A stretch of 64,000 nt of DNA, from positions 124,001 through 188,000 of the forward strand of contig NZ_JAVRIC010000001.1 of assembly GCF_031846245.1 (NCBI RefSeq), given 5' to 3'. How positions within the stretch are numbered: the first letter of the stretch is position 1; every line of letters begins with the position of its first letter. Both the position numbers and the translations under genes were made by a program. Below are positions 3,997 through 45,819 of the stretch, in pieces. This DNA comes from Banduia mediterranea. Lineage in GTDB: Bacteria; Pseudomonadota; Gammaproteobacteria; Nevskiales; Nevskiaceae. A model generated the notes under the pieces. That model had not been told where the DNA came from, made no database searches, and was given only the letters and a program-made list of their open reading frames with translations.

Positions 3997-6900
3997 AGAA
4001 AACCACAGCCCCCAATGCCCCGATGAGCCGCGCGCAGCGACTGCGCCGCTGGGCCGCGCGCAGCTGGTACATCATCGCGTTCGGATTCAGCGCGATGCTG
4101 GCGCTGAGTCTGGGCTTGACGCTGTGGCTGCTGAGCACCGAGGCCGGCTTGCGCAACGCCCTGGCCGTGGCGCGGCAGTTCACCGGTGGCGCACTGACGG
4201 TCGAGCAGGTCGAGGGCCGCCTGCTCACGCCGATGCATCTGAGCGGCGTCCGCTATCGGTCCGGGGGGCTGGAGGTCGAGGTCGACGAGGTCGATCTGGC
4301 GATGGACCTGTCGCAGATTCTCAGACTCAATGTGGTGGTCCGCACACTGGAAACCTCGGGTGTGCGCGTCAAGCTGGCGCCGCCGAAACCCGAAGAACCG
4401 GAGCCCGAGCCCGGTCAGCCACCCGAGCTGCGTCTGCCGCTCGGTGTTTTCGTCGGCAAGGTCTCGATCGACGATCTGGCCATTCGCAGCGCCGAGGACA
4501 CGGAGCTGTTCGCGCTGGAGCACGGTGACTTGTCCGGCCACTGGAATCGCGACGACATTCGCATCGATACGCTACAACTGGTGCACGAGGAATACGGCGA
4601 AATCGGACTGAGCGCGCAGGCCACGGCATTGGCGGACGGCGTGCTGATCGATGCGCTGGACGTGACCGGGCCGGGCAGGCTTTCGCTCGCCGGCCGCGTG
4701 GGTCTGAGCGCGCAGGCCGACAATGATCTGAACCTGAAATGGGACGATCTGCACTGGCCACCGCAAGGCGACCCCAGCATCACCAGCCCGGATGGCCGGC
4801 TCAGCGTCCAGGGCACCTGGACCGCGCTGAGTTTCGACGCCGACGCCGGGATCGGGCCGCAGGCACGCATCACCGCCCAGGGCGACTGGTCGCCCGACAA
4901 CATCGATGCGCACCTGGCCTGGACCGATCTGGCCGATTTCAAGAACCCGTCGCAGTCGATCTGGCGCAGCAGGCGCGGACGCCTGGACGTGACCGGCGTG
5001 CCCGAGGACTACCGTTTCGAACTGAACGGAGAGCTGGTGGCGCGTGAGCTGCCGGGCAAGATTGCCGGTGAGGGACAGGGCAATCTGCAAGGCCTGCATT
5101 TGCAGCGTTTTGTCCTTGAAGCCCTGCAGGGCTCCCTGACCGCCAAAGGTGATGTCGCCTGGAATCCCGAAGTCAGCGCCCAGCTGAGCCTGCGCGCCCG
5201 CAAGCTGGACCCTTCAGCGATCCTCGCCGGCTGGGCCGGCAGCATCAACGGCGATGTGGACTTCAGCCTGGCGATGCCGCAACAGCAGCCGGACGCCCGC
5301 TTCACGGTGGCGATCGACGACTCGGTGCTGCGCGACAGGCCGCTGTCGCTGCAGGCTCAGGGGCGCTACAGCGGTGATGCGCTCAATCTGCAGCAGGTGG
5401 AGCTGCACAGCGGCCGCACCACATTGACGGCCAGCGGCCGCGCCACGGCGCCCTTCGACCTCAAGGCCGATCTCGACAGCCCCAATCTCGAAGCCTTGTG
5501 GCCGGGGCTGGGCGGTCGCGCGAGCCTGCAGGCCAGCCTGCAGGGCGAGCTGCCGATCCCGGGGCTGCAACTGCGCGGTCAATTCGACGACGTGGCCTAT
5601 CAGGCCTACCGCCTGGCCAGCGCCAGCATCGACGCAGAGGTCTATCCGCAACAGCCGATGACGGTGCGGCTGGATGCCCGCGGCATCGACGTCGGCGAGT
5701 CGATCGACAGTCTAGGCCTGACGCTGGACGGCCCCTTGGCCGATCACCGCCTGCAGCTCGACGTGCTGACCGAAAGAGGCACGGTCTCGATGGCGATGGC
5801 GGGCGGCTACCAGCCGCAGGCGCAGCGCTGGGACGGAAACCTGCAGGCCCTGAGTGTGGCGCCCGGCAAGGCGCCGCCGTGGACGCTCCAGGCGCCGGCG
5901 CCGTTGACGCTGTCGGCGCGCGAAGCCGGGATCGAACGTGCCTGTCTTGGCGGAGACGGCGGCGAAGCCTGCCTGAGCGCGAACTACACCCCGGACGCGA
6001 CGCAGGCGTCCGTCGACCTCAGCCGTTTCGCCCTGGAATACCTGCGCCCCTTGCTGCCCGAGGACTACGCCTTCCGCGGCGAACTCAGCGGGCAGGCCGA
6101 TGTGGCACTTGCCGGCAGCACGCTGCGCAGCGCCAATGTCGATCTCAAGACCACCGAATTGCGTCTACGTGTCGGCGCCACGCTGCTGCAGTTGCAGCCC
6201 AGCACGCTGATCGCGCACGAGAACGAGCAGGGGCTGGATGTCGATACCCGGATCAATCTCAGCGAAGGCTCGATCATCCTGCAGGCACATGCGCAGCCCG
6301 GCGAAGTGCTGGCGCAGCGCGCGCTCGAAGGGAGGCTGGCGATCAACATCCCGGACATGGGCGTTCTGGAGCGGGCTTCGCCGGAAATCGGCGAAGCCAA
6401 GGGGGTCTTGAACGGCGCCTTCGATCTCGGTGGCACGCTGGGGCTGCCGGCCGTGAATGGAAAGCTGGCGGTCGATGACGGTTCCATCCGGTTGGAAACG
6501 CCGGGCATCGTACTGAGCAATCTGCAGGCCGACGTTCGCGGCACCAGCACCGGCCAGGTTCAGCTGGCGGTCTCGGCCGAATCGGGCAAGGGCACCCTGG
6601 AAATCGGCGGCGACATCGATTTCGCGGCGAAGCCACTGGTGGCGGATATCCACATCGGCGGCGACCGATTCCAGGCCGCGAACACGCCGGTCGCCAAGGT
6701 CTGGATCGATCCCGATCTGAACGTGCGGCTCGGCGCCAAGGGGCTCGATATCCGCGGCAGCGTCGGCGTGCCGCAGGCGCTGGTCACGCCGGAGCGCTTC
6801 AAGGGCGGCGGCGCGAGCTCGCCCTCGTCCGACCAGATCATTCTCGAAGGCGATGGCAGCGAGCCCGAACCGGCGCTGCCGATTCGCGCCGAAGTCACCG

Positions 6901-7592
6901 TCAAGCTGGGTGAAAAGGTCCGCTTCGAGGGCTACGGGCTGGAATCGCGCTTCAGTGGCTCCCTGACCGTCATCGAACAGCCCGGAAAGCTCACCTCCGC
7001 ACGCGGCCAGATCAGCATGGTCGATGGCAAATACCAAGCCTATGGCCAGGATCTCACGATCGAGACCGGCCGCCTGATCTACAGCGGCGGACCGGTGGTC
7101 GACCCTGCGCTGCAATTGCGCGCCTCGCGCCAGCCGCGCGACAACATCACCGTGGGCGTGATCGTGCGCGGCACGCTGGGCCAGCCGCAGTTCAGCCTTT
7201 ACTCCGATCCCTCGTCGATGACCCAGCAGGAGCAATTGTCGTGGCTGGTGCTGGGGCGTGGTCTCTCCAGCGGCGGCAGTGACGACGCGGCGCTCGCCAA
7301 CGCGGCGCTGTCGCTGGGCCTCAAGGGTGGGCAATGGTTCGCCGAAAAGATCGGTGGCGGCATCGGTCTGGATGACCTCAGCGTGGGTTCGGAGCCAGGG
7401 CAGACCGCAGATCAGGCGCAGCTCACGATTGGCAAGTACCTGTCACCCAAGCTCTACGTCAGCTATGGCGTCAGCCTGTTCCAGCCCGGCCACACCTTCA
7501 AGCTGCGCTATGACCTCGGCAAGGGTTTCTCGGTCGAAACCGAATCTGGGGTCTACAGCGGTGGTGATCTGCTGTATTCGATCGAGAAATGA
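3993..7592 (+). CDS. tamB: Translocation and assembly module protein TamB
   Basis: 1199 residues. One N-terminal transmembrane segment (about residues 28-52, WYIIAFGFSAMLALSLGLTL) anchors the protein in the inner membrane. A long periplasmic beta-helical region of the AsmA/TamB type follows, ending in the DUF490 domain (about residues 880-1199) that docks on TamA. The conserved C-terminal stretches YSDPSSMTQQEQLSWLVLGR and LYVSYGVSLFQPGHTFKLRY are present. It is translationally coupled to tamA. A proline/glutamate-rich linker (KPEEPEPEPGQPPEL) follows the first repeat region near residue 130. Nothing suggests truncation; E. coli TamB is 1259 residues. Confidence 0.95.
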   Translation: MKKTTAPNAPMSRAQRLRRWAARSWYIIAFGFSAMLALSLGLTLWLLSTEAGLRNALAVARQFTGGALTVEQVEGRLLTPMHLSGVRYRSGGLEVEVDEVDLAMDLSQILRLNVVVRTLETSGVRVKLAPPKPEEPEPEPGQPPELRLPLGVFVGKVSIDDLAIRSAEDTELFALEHGDLSGHWNRDDIRIDTLQLVHEEYGEIGLSAQATALADGVLIDALDVTGPGRLSLAGRVGLSAQADNDLNLKWDDLHWPPQGDPSITSPDGRLSVQGTWTALSFDADAGIGPQARITAQGDWSPDNIDAHLAWTDLADFKNPSQSIWRSRRGRLDVTGVPEDYRFELNGELVARELPGKIAGEGQGNLQGLHLQRFVLEALQGSLTAKGDVAWNPEVSAQLSLRARKLDPSAILAGWAGSINGDVDFSLAMPQQQPDARFTVAIDDSVLRDRPLSLQAQGRYSGDALNLQQVELHSGRTTLTASGRATAPFDLKADLDSPNLEALWPGLGGRASLQASLQGELPIPGLQLRGQFDDVAYQAYRLASASIDAEVYPQQPMTVRLDARGIDVGESIDSLGLTLDGPLADHRLQLDVLTERGTVSMAMAGGYQPQAQRWDGNLQALSVAPGKAPPWTLQAPAPLTLSAREAGIERACLGGDGGEACLSANYTPDATQASVDLSRFALEYLRPLLPEDYAFRGELSGQADVALAGSTLRSANVDLKTTELRLRVGATLLQLQPSTLIAHENEQGLDVDTRINLSEGSIILQAHAQPGEVLAQRALEGRLAINIPDMGVLERASPEIGEAKGVLNGAFDLGGTLGLPAVNGKLAVDDGSIRLETPGIVLSNLQADVRGTSTGQVQLAVSAESGKGTLEIGGDIDFAAKPLVADIHIGGDRFQAANTPVAKVWIDPDLNVRLGAKGLDIRGSVGVPQALVTPERFKGGGASSPSSDQIILEGDGSEPEPALPIRAEVTVKLGEKVRFEGYGLESRFSGSLTVIEQPGKLTSARGQISMVDGKYQAYGQDLTIETGRLIYSGGPVVDPALQLRASRQPRDNITVGVIVRGTLGQPQFSLYSDPSSMTQQEQLSWLVLGRGLSSGGSDDAALANAALSLGLKGGQWFAEKIGGGIGLDDLSVGSEPGQTADQAQLTIGKYLSPKLYVSYGVSLFQPGHTFKLRYDLGKGFSVETESGVYSGGDLLYSIEK

Positions 7593-42097: not shown

Positions 42098-42139
42098 CGT
42101 TTACGCTGAGATGACTTGTTTCACTCATCGCAACACCGC

Positions 42140-42535
42140 ATGGACTTACAGCCGCTTGTGCATCAGCTTAGGCAGTCGCTGGACGGACTGCTCGCCGTCT
42201 ACCTGTTCGGCAGCCATGCGCGCGACGAGGCGCGGCCGGACAGCGATCTCGACATGGCGATATACGCCGGGCGGCGCCTTGATCCTGAGCAGCTATGGAT
42301 GCTGTCCGGCAGCTTGGCCGCTGCCGCGAACTGCGACGTGGACCTGGTTGATCTGGTCGCGGCATCCACGGTCATGCAATACCAGATCATCACGCGTGGG
42401 CGGCGCCTGTGGGCGCTCGACTCTCAGGCGTCAAACTACGAAAGTTTCATACTCAGCGAGAAAATCGAACTCGATGCTGCGCGCGCGGGCCTGATCGCTG
42501 ACATTCGTGAGCGGGGATACGTGCATGGTCGATGA
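42140..42535 (+). CDS. mntA: MntA-type nucleotidyltransferase antitoxin
   Basis: 131 residues from ATG 42140. The minimal nucleotidyltransferase signature GS-X10-DXD is complete: LFGSHARDEARPDSDLDMAI. A second Asp lies in NCDVDLVDLVAAS. In characterised HepT/MntA pairs this enzyme adds AMP to a tyrosine of the HEPN toxin and so silences it. The gene overlaps the HEPN gene by 11 bases in the usual order. Confidence 0.88.
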   Translation: MDLQPLVHQLRQSLDGLLAVYLFGSHARDEARPDSDLDMAIYAGRRLDPEQLWMLSGSLAAAANCDVDLVDLVAASTVMQYQIITRGRRLWALDSQASNYESFILSEKIELDAARAGLIADIRERGYVHGR

Positions 42536-42950
42536 TGTGCTGCTGAACAAGGCCGCGAGCATCGAACGCTGCGTTGCCAGGGCGCGTGAGGAATACGAAC
42601 ACGACCCTGCGGCGTTCCCCGCCGATTCGACTCGCCAGGATGCCGCCATCCTCAATATTCAGCGTGCCTGCGAGGTGGCGTTGGACATGGGCCAGCACCT
42701 CATTCGGCGCGAGGCGATGGGTTTGCCGCAAAGTGCACGGGACGTATTTTCGATACTCGCCGATCACGGATGGATCGACGCGCAGCTGGCCGAGTCACTG
42801 AAGCGCATGGTCGGATTCCGCAATATCGCGGTGCATGCGTATCAGCAGTTGCAGATACCGATCGTGATCGCAGTGATCACTCGGCATCTGGATGAATTTC
42901 TGCAATACACCGGCCGGCTCTTGCGAAAGGACGCGGGCACCTCTCCCTGA
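42525..42950 (+). CDS. hepT: HepT-type HEPN toxin (DUF86)
   Basis: 141 residues. The ATG at 42525 lies inside the end of mntA. The HEPN RNase motif RX4HXY is intact as FRNIAVHAYQQLQ near residue 105, with the tyrosine that MntA would modify. Supporting helices (MVDDVLLNKAASIERCVARA, AILNIQRACEVALDMGQHLI) match DUF86. The pair is a type VII toxin-antitoxin candidate inserted after gltA. The convergent GNAT gene ends 13 bases downstream. Confidence 0.88.
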   Translation: MVDDVLLNKAASIERCVARAREEYEHDPAAFPADSTRQDAAILNIQRACEVALDMGQHLIRREAMGLPQSARDVFSILADHGWIDAQLAESLKRMVGFRNIAVHAYQQLQIPIVIAVITRHLDEFLQYTGRLLRKDAGTSP

Positions 42951-42963
42951 AGCGGACCGTGGT

Positions 42964-43431
42964 TCAGAATGTACGCCGCAGCCGCAGGCCGGTTTCGCCG
43001 TCTTCGTAGTAGTCCGGCAGGCAGGCGTGCAGGTGATAGCCGAGCCGTTCGTAGAGCGCGCGTGCCGCCTGGTTGTCGGCGCGCACTTCCAGCGACATCG
43101 TGCGGCAACCGCGCTTGCGCGCTTCCGTCTGGGCCGCGTGGACCAGGCGGATGCCCAGGCCGTGACCGCGCGCCTCGGGATGCACCACCAGCGAATAGAT
43201 GCGCGCGATCGTGGAGCCGCGGCGCGTGGTCATCACCAGGGCGCCACAGGTCCAGCGTTGGCGCAGCGCCACCCAGGCGGCGGCGCTGGGCACGCCGAGC
43301 AGACGCCGGATCGCGCGGTCCGACATGCGGTCGCCGGGGAACAGCTGTTCGAGCGCGATGATCGCCTCGGCGTCTTCGCGCCGGGCGCGACGCACGCGGA
43401 CCTCCGGCTGTGACGCCATTTCAGCGCGCAC
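42964..43431 (-). CDS. GNAT N-acetyltransferase (RimI-like), third gene of the RimK/C39 operon
   Basis: 155 residues. A GNAT fold with the acetyl-CoA loop HPEARGHGLGIRLVHAAQTE near 90 and C-terminal NQAARALYERLGYHLHACLP. The N-terminus (VRVRRARREDAEAIIALEQL) is RimI-like. It overlaps the RimK-like gene by 11 bases, so it is translated with it. In other gammaproteobacteria I know of proteins annotated as GNAT fused to a C39-like peptidase, which fits these genes forming one functional set. The acetyl acceptor is unknown. Confidence 0.85.
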   Translation of the reverse strand: MRAEMASQPEVRVRRARREDAEAIIALEQLFPGDRMSDRAIRRLLGVPSAAAWVALRQRWTCGALVMTTRRGSTIARIYSLVVHPEARGHGLGIRLVHAAQTEARKRGCRTMSLEVRADNQAARALYERLGYHLHACLPDYYEDGETGLRLRRTF

Positions 43432-44893
43432 CTTCGCGAACGCGCGACTCCAGGCGGCGCAGGAAGAACTCCATCACCTTGCGGTACAGCGCCTCCTTGA
43501 GCACCAGGTCTTCCACGCCGAAGTCGAGGTTCGGGTTGTCGTTGACCTCGATCACCTTGACGCGCTTGCCGAACTGCTTGAGGTCCACGCCGTACAGTCC
43601 GCTGCCGATCGCGCGTGCGGCCTGCACGGCCACGTTGAGCACCGGCTTCGGCACGTCCGCGATATCCAGGGTTTCATGCTCACCCTCGGACTTGCTGCCC
43701 TTGCTGTCGCGCTTGACGATCTGCCAGTGTTTGGGCGCCATGTAGTAACGGCAGGCGTACAGCGGCTCGCCGTCGAGCACGCCGATCCGCCAGTCGTATT
43801 CGGTGGGTTCGAAGGCCTGGGCCACGATCAGGTCCGAGCGTTCCAGCATGTCCGCGGCCTTGCGGCGGAACTCCGCCGCGTCGTCGACCTTGATCACGCC
43901 CTTGGAGAAGGCCGAGTCCGGTTGTTTGAGCACACACGGAAAGCCGAGTTCGGCCGCGGCCTGCTTGAGGTTGCGCGGGTGGATCAGCACGGTTTTCGGC
44001 GTGGGGATGCGGTGGCGGTCCATCAGCTGCGCGAGAAACACCTTGTTCGAACAGCGCAGGATCGACAAGGGATCGTCGACCACCACCAGGCCCTCGCGCG
44101 CGGCGCGGCGCGAGAAGCGGTAGGTGTGATGATTGACGGCGGTGGTCTCGCGTATGAACAGGGCGTCGAATTCGGCGACGTGGCCGTAGTCGCCCTTGTC
44201 GAGGATCTCCACGTCGAAGCCGAGGTCTTCGGCGGCCTTTTCGAACAGCTTGATCGCGCGCGGGTTCGATGGCGGTTCCTTCTCGTCCTCGTTGACCAGA
44301 AACGCCATGTCATAGCGATACGAATCGCGCGTGGTGCGGCGCGGCGAGCGCTTGCGCAGGAAGTAGTCGAGCGCCGACTCCAGCATGAATTCGTGATGCG
44401 TCTCCGGAATCTCGCCGAGCGCAATCGGGCCCAGGGCGTCGACGCGCCATTCGTCGCCCCGCCACGAGAACTTGGCCTGCAACAGCGGTGCCGGAAACAG
44501 GTTGAACAGCGCCGCGGCCAGACGTTCATGCCGCTTGGCCAGACTGCGCCCGAAATACACGTTGAGCACATAGCGCTCGCCACCGATGCGCGACAGGCTC
44601 TTTTCGATCAGCTCATCGACTTCGTCGGCGACCACGCGTGGACTTTCGGCGAGCTTGAGATCCTGGATCGTGGTGATGTCCGGCAAGGGCCGATGGTCGC
44701 GCGCGCCGGCCAGCAGCGACACGTAGTAGCCGGTGGATTGATAGCTGAACGAGCGGCACAGGTTGTAGATGCGCGTGCGCCGGCTGCGCGTGAATTCGTC
44801 CTGCGTCAGGTAGTCCCAGGCCGTGACCACGTCCACGCCGGGAATCTCCACGGGCCAGTCCGACAGTTGGTCGACAATGACAATGCCGCTCAC
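43421..44893 (-). CDS. RimK-family ATP-grasp ligase with RLAN-type N-terminal domain
   Basis: 490 residues, much longer than E. coli RimK (300). Residues 1-160 fit the RLAN (RimK-like ATP-grasp N-terminal) domain: MSGIVIVDQLSDWPVEIPGV, RIYNLCRSFSYQSTGYYVSL. The ATP-grasp domain fills about 265-480: LRCSNKVFLAQLMDRHRIPT, FPCVLKQPDSAFSKGVIKVD, and the metal-binding VIEVNDNPNLDFGVEDLV. RimK-type enzymes add amino acids to a carboxyl group; here neither acceptor nor added residue is known. It overlaps the C39 peptidase gene by 4 bases and the GNAT gene by 11. Confidence 0.88.
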   Translation of the reverse strand: MSGIVIVDQLSDWPVEIPGVDVVTAWDYLTQDEFTRSRRTRIYNLCRSFSYQSTGYYVSLLAGARDHRPLPDITTIQDLKLAESPRVVADEVDELIEKSLSRIGGERYVLNVYFGRSLAKRHERLAAALFNLFPAPLLQAKFSWRGDEWRVDALGPIALGEIPETHHEFMLESALDYFLRKRSPRRTTRDSYRYDMAFLVNEDEKEPPSNPRAIKLFEKAAEDLGFDVEILDKGDYGHVAEFDALFIRETTAVNHHTYRFSRRAAREGLVVVDDPLSILRCSNKVFLAQLMDRHRIPTPKTVLIHPRNLKQAAAELGFPCVLKQPDSAFSKGVIKVDDAAEFRRKAADMLERSDLIVAQAFEPTEYDWRIGVLDGEPLYACRYYMAPKHWQIVKRDSKGSKSEGEHETLDIADVPKPVLNVAVQAARAIGSGLYGVDLKQFGKRVKVIEVNDNPNLDFGVEDLVLKEALYRKVMEFFLRRLESRVREGAR

Positions 44894-45612
44894 GCTCCAA
44901 TGCTCCTTTTGCAGGGTTCGATGACCAGCAGATTGCAGTCGAAGGACACCACGCCCAGCAGTACCGAGGCGATCAGCCGCTCGATCTTCACGGGATAGGA
45001 TCGCGCTTCGCTGTAGGGATTGCCTTCGTAGGGGTCGGCCACCCAGACCTCGCGTTTGGCACGGTCGTAGCCAGACAGCACCACGAAGTGTCCGGCCGGC
45101 TCGCCGTTGAGATCGTCTTCGGTGGTGTCGTCGAGTTCGCGCGGAGTGCGGTACAGCCAGGTCGAGGACAGGCCGGTCATCACCGGGATTCCGCGCGATA
45201 GATAATGGCGCAACAGTTTGCCGGTCAGGTCCGCGATCTTGAGCTCACCGCCCATTTCGAGGAAATCGATGTAGCCCTTGGTGGCGATCGCGATCTTGGG
45301 GTGGCGTGCCTCCTTGATCGCCCACTGGTGGCGCAGCTTGTCGATGATCGCCGACTTGGACAGCTCGAACCAGGTCGGGTCGAACAGGGATAGATTGTGC
45401 ATGTAGATCGTTGCGCGATAGCCGCGGCGCAGCGCGTGGTCAGCCAGAAAGGCGTCGAGCGTGCCGCCTTCGCGCAGCGCGCGGGTTTCCGCGATCACCT
45501 CGTCCAGGCTGATATCGTCACCGTAGTAACGATAAACCGCGTGCAGACAGGTCGGCCCGCAAGTGGTTTCGGTCGGTTGAGCCGGGATGGCGAACGAAAT
45601 CCGCGTAGTCAT
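44890..45612 (-). CDS. C39-like cysteine peptidase (DUF3335 type), first gene of the RimK operon
   Basis: 240 residues with no signal peptide or ABC module. The papain-like site is visible: Cys18 in AQPTETTCGPTCLHAVYRYY, His in GEPAGHFVVLSGYDRAKREV and Asp in VWVADPYEGNPYSEARSY. C39 enzymes in peptide exporters cut leader peptides after a double glycine, but this stand-alone cytoplasmic form has no known substrate. It leads a three-gene overlapping operon with the RimK-like ligase and the GNAT. No precursor-peptide gene is evident between 45613 and 45819. Confidence 0.85.
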   Translation of the reverse strand: MTTRISFAIPAQPTETTCGPTCLHAVYRYYGDDISLDEVIAETRALREGGTLDAFLADHALRRGYRATIYMHNLSLFDPTWFELSKSAIIDKLRHQWAIKEARHPKIAIATKGYIDFLEMGGELKIADLTGKLLRHYLSRGIPVMTGLSSTWLYRTPRELDDTTEDDLNGEPAGHFVVLSGYDRAKREVWVADPYEGNPYSEARSYPVKIERLIASVLLGVVSFDCNLLVIEPCKRSIGA

Positions 45613-45819
45613 TGTTATGAGTGTCCAGGTCCGTCGGCTGCACTGAACCGACGTGAATTTTCGCCTCGCGCACGGACGGATGCGCAGTGTGCTGATTGCG
45701 TCGTGGCGCGTCCAGATGATTCGTGCGGTGGCGTCGCCGTTCGAGACAGCGCTCCGGTCAGCCGTGCATCATGCGGCAAAGTGAGGGGGCTTGGTTTGAA
45801 AATCGGTTCGGGGGAAACG

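What the first reader, a model, noticed from the sequence alone, without database searches (positions are those of the whole stretch)
42964..45612. Three overlapping genes: C39-like peptidase, RLAN-RimK ATP-grasp ligase, GNAT
The genes overlap by 4 and 11 bases, so they are made together. A cysteine peptidase, an ATP-grasp amino-acid ligase with a special N-terminal domain and an acetyltransferase form a logical set for trimming, extending and capping a peptide or protein terminus. Homologs of the peptidase and the GNAT occur fused in other gammaproteobacteria, supporting one pathway. No substrate is known and no precursor-peptide gene is visible nearby.
Basis: partly seen in the sequence, partly recalled or inferred. 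Interest (0 to 1): 0.75.

Follow-up and report, generated by a model that had tools for sequence, protein, structure and literature searches.

The report
Peptide-ligase operon with swapped partners
Three tightly packed bacterial genes encode an unstudied machine that most likely joins amino acids into a small peptide and caps its amino end; comparison across phyla shows that the capping enzyme is interchangeable, which makes a widespread but uncharacterised pathway testable.

Summary
In detail: on the minus strand, a papain-like C39-type cysteine peptidase (45612-44890), an RLAN-RimK ATP-grasp ligase (44893-43421) and a GNAT (43431-42964), all with intact catalytic residues. The ligase family is widespread and has two clades. 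Clade I sits beside a GNAT fused to a second C39-like family (DUF3335). Clade II sits in a C39 / RLAN-RimK / GCS2 (gamma-glutamyl-amine ligase) / N-formylglutamate amidohydrolase operon across several phyla. The window belongs to clade II, but a GNAT of the clade-I subfamily stands where GCS2 and the amidohydrolase should be (no GCS2 anywhere in the genome). The two C39 families track the ligase almost perfectly, yet the peptidase is dispensable: 56 of 58 family genomes keep the ligase, only 4 the peptidase. No precursor peptide is conserved nearby. Best reading: the ligase makes a short peptide whose amine is capped by acetyl (GNAT) or gamma-glutamyl (GCS2), with the papain-like enzyme trimming or recycling it. 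It is not the NAGGN osmolyte pathway, which the genome has separately. The GNAT-C39 fusion was already noted in a 2009 prediction (seen here only by citation); I found no description of the partner swap or the window hybrid. Substrate and product remain unknown.

The parts
44890..45612 (-). C39-like (papain-fold) cysteine peptidase, 'pepA'; catalytic Q12, C18, H175, D193
   Evidence: PF13529 1.1e-13; Q12/C18/H175 invariant and D193 at least 90% in 29 homologues; model pLDDT 85.7 with PDB matches PeiR, PCAT1/ComA C39 domains and Alr0975
43421..44893 (-). RLAN-RimK ATP-grasp ligase (RLAN about residues 27-172, ATP-grasp module about 195-490)
   Evidence: PF14401 1.4e-44, PF08443 1.3e-07; D437, E449, N451 and the other ATP-grasp residues invariant in 43 homologues and conserved across both clades; model pLDDT 84.6, best PDB matches ArgX/LysX/RimK/Ddl
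42964..43431 (-). GNAT acetyltransferase, RimI-like; GTG start, alternative ATG at 43419
   Evidence: PF00583 5e-18; E115 and Y142 conserved in at least 95% and D34 in 100% of 61 RLAN-linked GNATs, solo or fused; best hit in 9 of 10 clade-I genomes is the GNAT fused to DUF3335 beside RLAN
45613..45819 (.). intergenic space between the operon and a divergent FecR-SPOR gene (starts about 45820, + strand); presumed promoter region, no sigma-70 consensus found
   Evidence: a FecR-SPOR-like gene is also the divergent neighbour in Solimonas soli L032

Best explanation
The operon makes (and probably recycles) a small N-capped peptide metabolite. RLAN-RimK activates a carboxylate with ATP and joins it to an amino acid (inferred from intact ATP-grasp residues and the ArgX/LysX/RimK/Ddl fold). 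The GNAT acetylates the free alpha-amine of the amino acid or peptide (inferred; RimI-like catalytic residues kept). In most other clade-II operons the same chemical position, an amine to be capped, is served by GCS2, which would add a gamma-glutamyl group, with N-formylglutamate amidohydrolase as the matching decapping enzyme. The papain-like peptidase hydrolyses or transfers the peptide (trimming, editing or recycling) and is not needed for the core reaction. Shown here: anatomy, intact catalytic residues, co-occurrence, partner replacement, absence of a conserved precursor gene, absence of GCS2 from the genome. Inferred: substrates, order of steps, small-molecule nature.
For: Two RLAN-RimK clades with different partner sets; window nested in clade II (C39 > RLAN > GCS2 > FGase) but with GNAT in the GCS2 position; no GCS2 in the whole window genome. 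The GNAT belongs to the same subfamily as the GNAT fused to DUF3335 in clade I, so acetylation is tied to RLAN-RimK in both clades. Both C39 families are homologous with Q/C/H/D aligned, follow RLAN and exclude each other (0 genomes with both). No conserved short ORF. Precedent: the NAGGN operon uses a GNAT-ATP-grasp protein plus a peptidase to make an N-acetylated dipeptide (PMC8070244), and capping by an associated GNAT was proposed for another ATP-grasp family (PMC4431377). GCS2 plus ATP-grasp mirrors the two glutathione ligases (family knowledge).
Against: No substrate, product or phenotype was measured. RimK itself modifies a protein C-terminus and RimI a protein N-terminus, so the homologues alone do not favour small molecules. 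GNAT replacing GCS2 rests on gene position, not activity. FGase may have another role. In Pseudomonas aeruginosa the ligase gene stands alone in the stretch examined, so it may not need any of these partners.
Confidence: 0.45

Rival explanations
1. Protein-terminus modification: RLAN-RimK adds residues to the C-terminus of a housekeeping protein, as RimK does on S6, the peptidase removes them as RimB does, and the GNAT caps another terminus of the same target.
For: Closest solved relatives include RimK, and ArgX bound to the carrier protein LysW; GNAT is RimI/NAA30-like; the RimK/RimB and RloABC systems pair an ATP-grasp with a protease (PMC12239564); the ligase is a core gene in its family (49 of 49 near-complete genomes), as expected for a housekeeping role.
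Against: No target or carrier-protein gene is conserved nearby; the GNAT/GCS2-FGase exchange is hard to explain for a protein target; the peptidase is missing in most relatives.
Confidence: 0.25
2. The papain-like enzyme is an acyl- or aminoacyl-transferase (like BtrH/CtaG-type or phytochelatin-synthase-type proteins) that moves the ligated group onto a second molecule, so the product is a hybrid amide rather than a capped peptide.
For: PDB matches to Alr0975 acyl-enzyme with glutathione, CtaG and AziU3/U2; DUF3335 profile weakly matches BtrH-N proteins (E 0.0041); the papain-like superfamily holds acyltransferases and transglutaminases (PMC10318531).
Against: Sequence is closest to C39 hydrolases; the glutamine and Cys-His-Asp pattern does not tell hydrolase from transferase; the enzyme is dispensable in most Nevskiaceae.
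Confidence: 0.15
3. RiPP-type cluster: the ligase modifies a ribosomal precursor and the C39 enzyme removes its leader.
For: C39 fold and ATP-grasp occur together in graspetide clusters (PMC8939145).
Against: No conserved short ORF within 3.5 kb of the ligase in 44 clade-II, 20 clade-I and 19 Nevskiales loci; no conserved ABC exporter neighbour; family-wide core distribution.
Confidence: 0.04
4. The three genes are neighbours without a shared pathway; only the ligase matters and the others are passengers.
For: Peptidase absent from 52 of 56 ligase-bearing family genomes; GNAT absent next to the ligase in most clade-II operons and in P. aeruginosa.
Against: Overlapping junctions kept over long distances; C39-type families occur almost only with RLAN (55 of 56 genomes); GNAT associated in both clades; C39 and RLAN trees agree on the placement of the window's group.
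Confidence: 0.11

Closest known systems
RLAN-RimK / GNAT-DUF3335 neighbourhoods (Pfam PF14401, PF11814; predicted by Iyer et al. 2009, PMID 20023723, not held here)
   Same: Same ligase family and the same kinds of partners (C39-like enzyme, GNAT); PMC10318531 cites that work for the GNAT-DUF3335 fusion
   Different: Window peptidase is PF13529-type, not DUF3335, and genes are separate; window ligase is of clade II, whose usual partners are GCS2 and FGase
Clade-II operon C39 > RLAN-RimK > GCS2 > N-formylglutamate amidohydrolase (e.g. L079 Geobacteraceae, L111, L099)
   Same: Orthologous peptidase (about 50-54% identical) and ligase, same order, same overlaps
   Different: GCS2 and FGase replaced by GNAT in the window; no GCS2 anywhere in the genome
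NAGGN osmolyte operon (TIGR03103 GNAT-ATP-grasp, amidotransferase, peptidase)
   Same: Logic: GNAT plus ATP-grasp ligase plus peptidase giving an N-acetylated dipeptide
   Different: No RLAN domain, no amidotransferase partner here; the genome has a true TIGR03103 gene elsewhere (C1:82112-83743, 875 bits)
RimK/RimB S6 glutamylation and RloABC (Pseudomonas)
   Same: RimK-type ATP-grasp paired with a protease
   Different: Proteases there are retropepsin-like; the window ligase scores far under the RimK models (18.7 vs 331 and 64.5 vs 143.4 bits)

Membership tests
RLAN-RimK ligase family (PF14401 + PF08443) | RLAN domain followed by a RimK-like ATP-grasp, both over Pfam cut-offs | tested here: met
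   151.8 bits (cut-off 25) and 31.9 bits (cut-off 21)
RLAN-RimK ligase family (PF14401 + PF08443) | intact ATP-grasp metal/ATP residues | tested here: met
   D437, E449, N451 and others invariant
DUF3335 (PF11814) GNAT-fused peptidases | score over PF11814 cut-off | tested here: not met
   15.6 vs 25 bits; homologous by profile comparison, 96.1%, E 2.9e-9
C39 > RLAN > GCS2 > FGase operon | C39-type peptidase and RLAN-RimK of the clade-II type, overlapping | tested here: met
   trees and order
C39 > RLAN > GCS2 > FGase operon | GCS2 gene downstream | tested here: not met
   GNAT in its place; no PF04107 in the genome
RimK S6:L-glutamate ligase | score over NF007764 / TIGR00768 cut-offs | tested here: not met
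   18.7 vs 331; 64.5 vs 143.4 bits
NAGGN synthetase (TIGR03103) | GNAT-ATP-grasp protein over the 569-bit cut-off | tested here: not met
   window GNAT 33.4 bits; real TIGR03103 protein elsewhere in the genome
RimI (TIGR01575) | score over cut-off | tested here: not met
   71.5 vs 86.4 bits
RiPP cluster with C39 leader peptidase | conserved precursor ORF and exporter nearby | tested here: not met
N-capped small-peptide pathway | ligase-dependent capped peptide | not testable with these tools
   needs metabolomics or enzyme assays

The most novel reading that the evidence does not exclude
RLAN-RimK defines a widespread class of bacterial capped-peptide metabolites, a glutathione-like or NAGGN-like molecule in two chemical versions: gamma-glutamylated in Desulfobacterota, Planctomycetota and Fibrobacterota, and N-acetylated in gammaproteobacteria. 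The window operon is an evolutionary hybrid in which the capping chemistry was switched while ligase and peptidase were kept.
Probability: 0.25. Interest if true: 0.8.

Novelty: new variant of a known kind. Interest (0 to 1): 0.5.

Why it matters
A ligase family that is a core gene in one bacterial family and present in about a quarter of sampled gammaproteobacterial genomes has no known product. The exchange of GNAT for GCS2 plus amidohydrolase narrows its chemistry to an amine that is capped, so metabolomics of single deletions or a small in vitro substrate panel could identify the molecule.

Tried and rejected
RiPP precursor search (short ORFs of 15-110 aa around 83 loci): only small clusters, at most 5 loci, which by position look like alternative-frame or antisense shadows of conserved flanking genes. 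NAGGN identity: rejected, a true NAGGN synthetase exists elsewhere. RimK S6 ligase and RimI identity: rejected on curated cut-offs. A first neighbour clustering merged alternative-frame ORFs and was replaced by profile-labelled architectures. GNAT tree too noisy: distant paralogues on long branches; orthology judged instead by genome-wide best hit and shared motif. Phage copies: only weak ATP-grasp matches, no RLAN. Plasmid copies: the two annotated ones look like chromosomal context. CpxR sites: none in the window. Iyer et al. 2009 could not be read; its content is taken from citing papers and memory.

Full report
Observation. The three ORFs exist at the given coordinates, all on the minus strand: peptidase 45612-44890, RLAN-RimK ligase 44893-43421, GNAT 43431-42964. 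The first junction overlaps by 4 bases. The second overlaps by 11 with the GTG start, or leaves 1 base with an in-frame ATG. Pfam supports all three assignments. Catalytic residues are intact: Q12, C18, H175 and D193 in the peptidase; D437, E449 and N451 plus the other invariant residues of the ATP-grasp; E115 and Y142 in the GNAT (roles by analogy with RimI, from general knowledge).

Surroundings. A FecR-SPOR gene diverges upstream and a nucleotidyltransferase/HepT-like pair converges from downstream. The window is part of a 3.83 Mb genome whose nearest named relatives are Nevskiaceae such as Solimonas (ligase mostly 66-78% identical).

Architectures. Profile-labelled neighbourhoods fall into a few types (some loci were fetched twice, so counts are approximate). 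Type A: C39 peptidase > RLAN-RimK > GCS2 > N-formylglutamate amidohydrolase, in Thermodesulfobacteriota, Myxococcota, Planctomycetota and some gammas, and without a detected amidohydrolase in Fibrobacterota and Balneolota; Pfam confirms PF04107 and PF05013. Type B: GNAT-DUF3335 fusion next to RLAN-RimK, in most RLAN-bearing gammas sampled. Type C: RLAN-RimK > GNAT without peptidase, in most Nevskiaceae, and GNAT > RLAN in a few other gammas. The window type, peptidase > RLAN-RimK > GNAT, was seen only in the window genome, a second species of its genus (L158) and one further genus of the family (L156).

Trees. RLAN-RimK splits into two clades with full support: all type B loci in one, all type A loci in the other; the window and the Nevskiales lie inside the type A clade in a group with 99% support (FastTree). 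The peptidase tree keeps the window with L156 and places them near L111, L157 and L103, as the ligase tree does. One oddity: window and L156 are 72.5% identical in the peptidase but only 62.9% in the ligase, so a transfer of the peptidase between these genera, instead of repeated losses elsewhere, cannot be excluded.

Co-occurrence. Among 274 class genomes RLAN is in 63, strong DUF3335 in 43, of which 42 have RLAN, and the window-type peptidase in 13, all with RLAN. No genome has both peptidase families (two genomes with the window-type or no peptidase show only weak DUF3335 matches). Fisher tests give 2e-32, 2e-9 and, for mutual exclusion inside RLAN genomes, 2e-8 (genomes are not fully independent). 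Within the window's family, RLAN is in 56 of 58 genomes and in all 49 near-complete ones, but the peptidase is in 4.

GNAT identity. In 9 of 10 clade-I genomes the best genome-wide match of the window GNAT is the GNAT domain fused to DUF3335 beside RLAN, while the best paralogues in the window genome score 1e-7 or worse. All 61 RLAN-linked GNATs share D34, which the RimI-like paralogue of this genome (L170) appears to lack. So one GNAT subfamily is associated with the ligase in both clades.

Folds. The ligase model (pLDDT 84.6) matches ArgX, LysX, RimK and D-Ala-D-Ala ligases over about 300 residues, the length of the C-terminal ATP-grasp module. The peptidase model (pLDDT 85.7) matches an isopeptidase (PeiR), C39 domains of PCAT1/ComA, and the glutathione-cleaving phytochelatin-synthase relative Alr0975. 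DUF3335 and the window peptidase are homologous with catalytic residues aligned.

Mechanism. GNAT stands where GCS2 and the amidohydrolase stand in type A, and no GCS2 is left in the genome (two FGase-family genes exist elsewhere). Both GNAT and GCS2 would cap an amine, by acetyl or by gamma-glutamyl. Together with the missing precursor ORF this favours a small capped peptide made by the ligase. The NAGGN pathway is the working precedent but not the identity, since a true NAGGN synthetase gene lies elsewhere in this genome. A protein-terminus modification stays the main rival.

Prior knowledge. The GNAT-DUF3335 fusion and a possible peptide-ligase role are cited to Iyer et al. 2009 (the paper itself is not held). 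Literature searches found no experimental study of RLAN or DUF3335. In P. aeruginosa the orthologue is PA1345: the CpxR-type motif printed for PA1345 in PMC12802237 (motif-predicted only, not supported by DAP-Seq) is found exactly about 69 bases before the RLAN gene of L182.

Noticed in passing
window 42116-42535 (+) and 42507-42950 (+): Overlapping nucleotidyltransferase (PF18765) and HepT-like (PF01934) genes, a MNT/HepT-type toxin-antitoxin-like pair convergent with the operon.
   Followed up: no
L182 9902-11491 (P. aeruginosa plasmid pZYPA1927): Solo RLAN-RimK identified as PA1345 by exact CpxR-motif match at -69; its neighbours are pagP, glutamate/aspartate transport, ggt and asparaginase genes.
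   Followed up: partly
L132 5875-10528: Clade-I locus with a DUF2817 gene between RLAN and GNAT-DUF3335 and a DUF155-like (RMND1-like) gene after it; the DUF155 family recurs next to RLAN in 3 of 20 clade-I loci.
   Followed up: partly
L136 9764-10963, L150 5494-6651: An M20 peptidase gene (ArgE-like by eye) lies divergent from GNAT-DUF3335 in 4 of 20 clade-I loci; a possible deacylase link.
   Followed up: partly
L178 around 6849-7295 (G019:C1:768848-769294): Free-standing GNAT, 45% identical to the window GNAT, away from RLAN in a genome that also has the fused form.
   Followed up: partly
L183 (Legionella adelaidensis 'plasmid 27', 9 kb): Carries RLAN, GCS2 and FGase together with fur, bamE and dapF; looks like chromosomal DNA labelled as a plasmid.
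   Followed up: no
L124 (G151:C10): RLAN-RimK reading frame broken into several pieces; probably a pseudogene or an assembly error.
   Followed up: no
L063, L067: Records titled Verrucomicrobia and Rhodospirillales carry Nevskiaceae-like RLAN genes (72-73% identical); likely mis-binned or misnamed.
   Followed up: no
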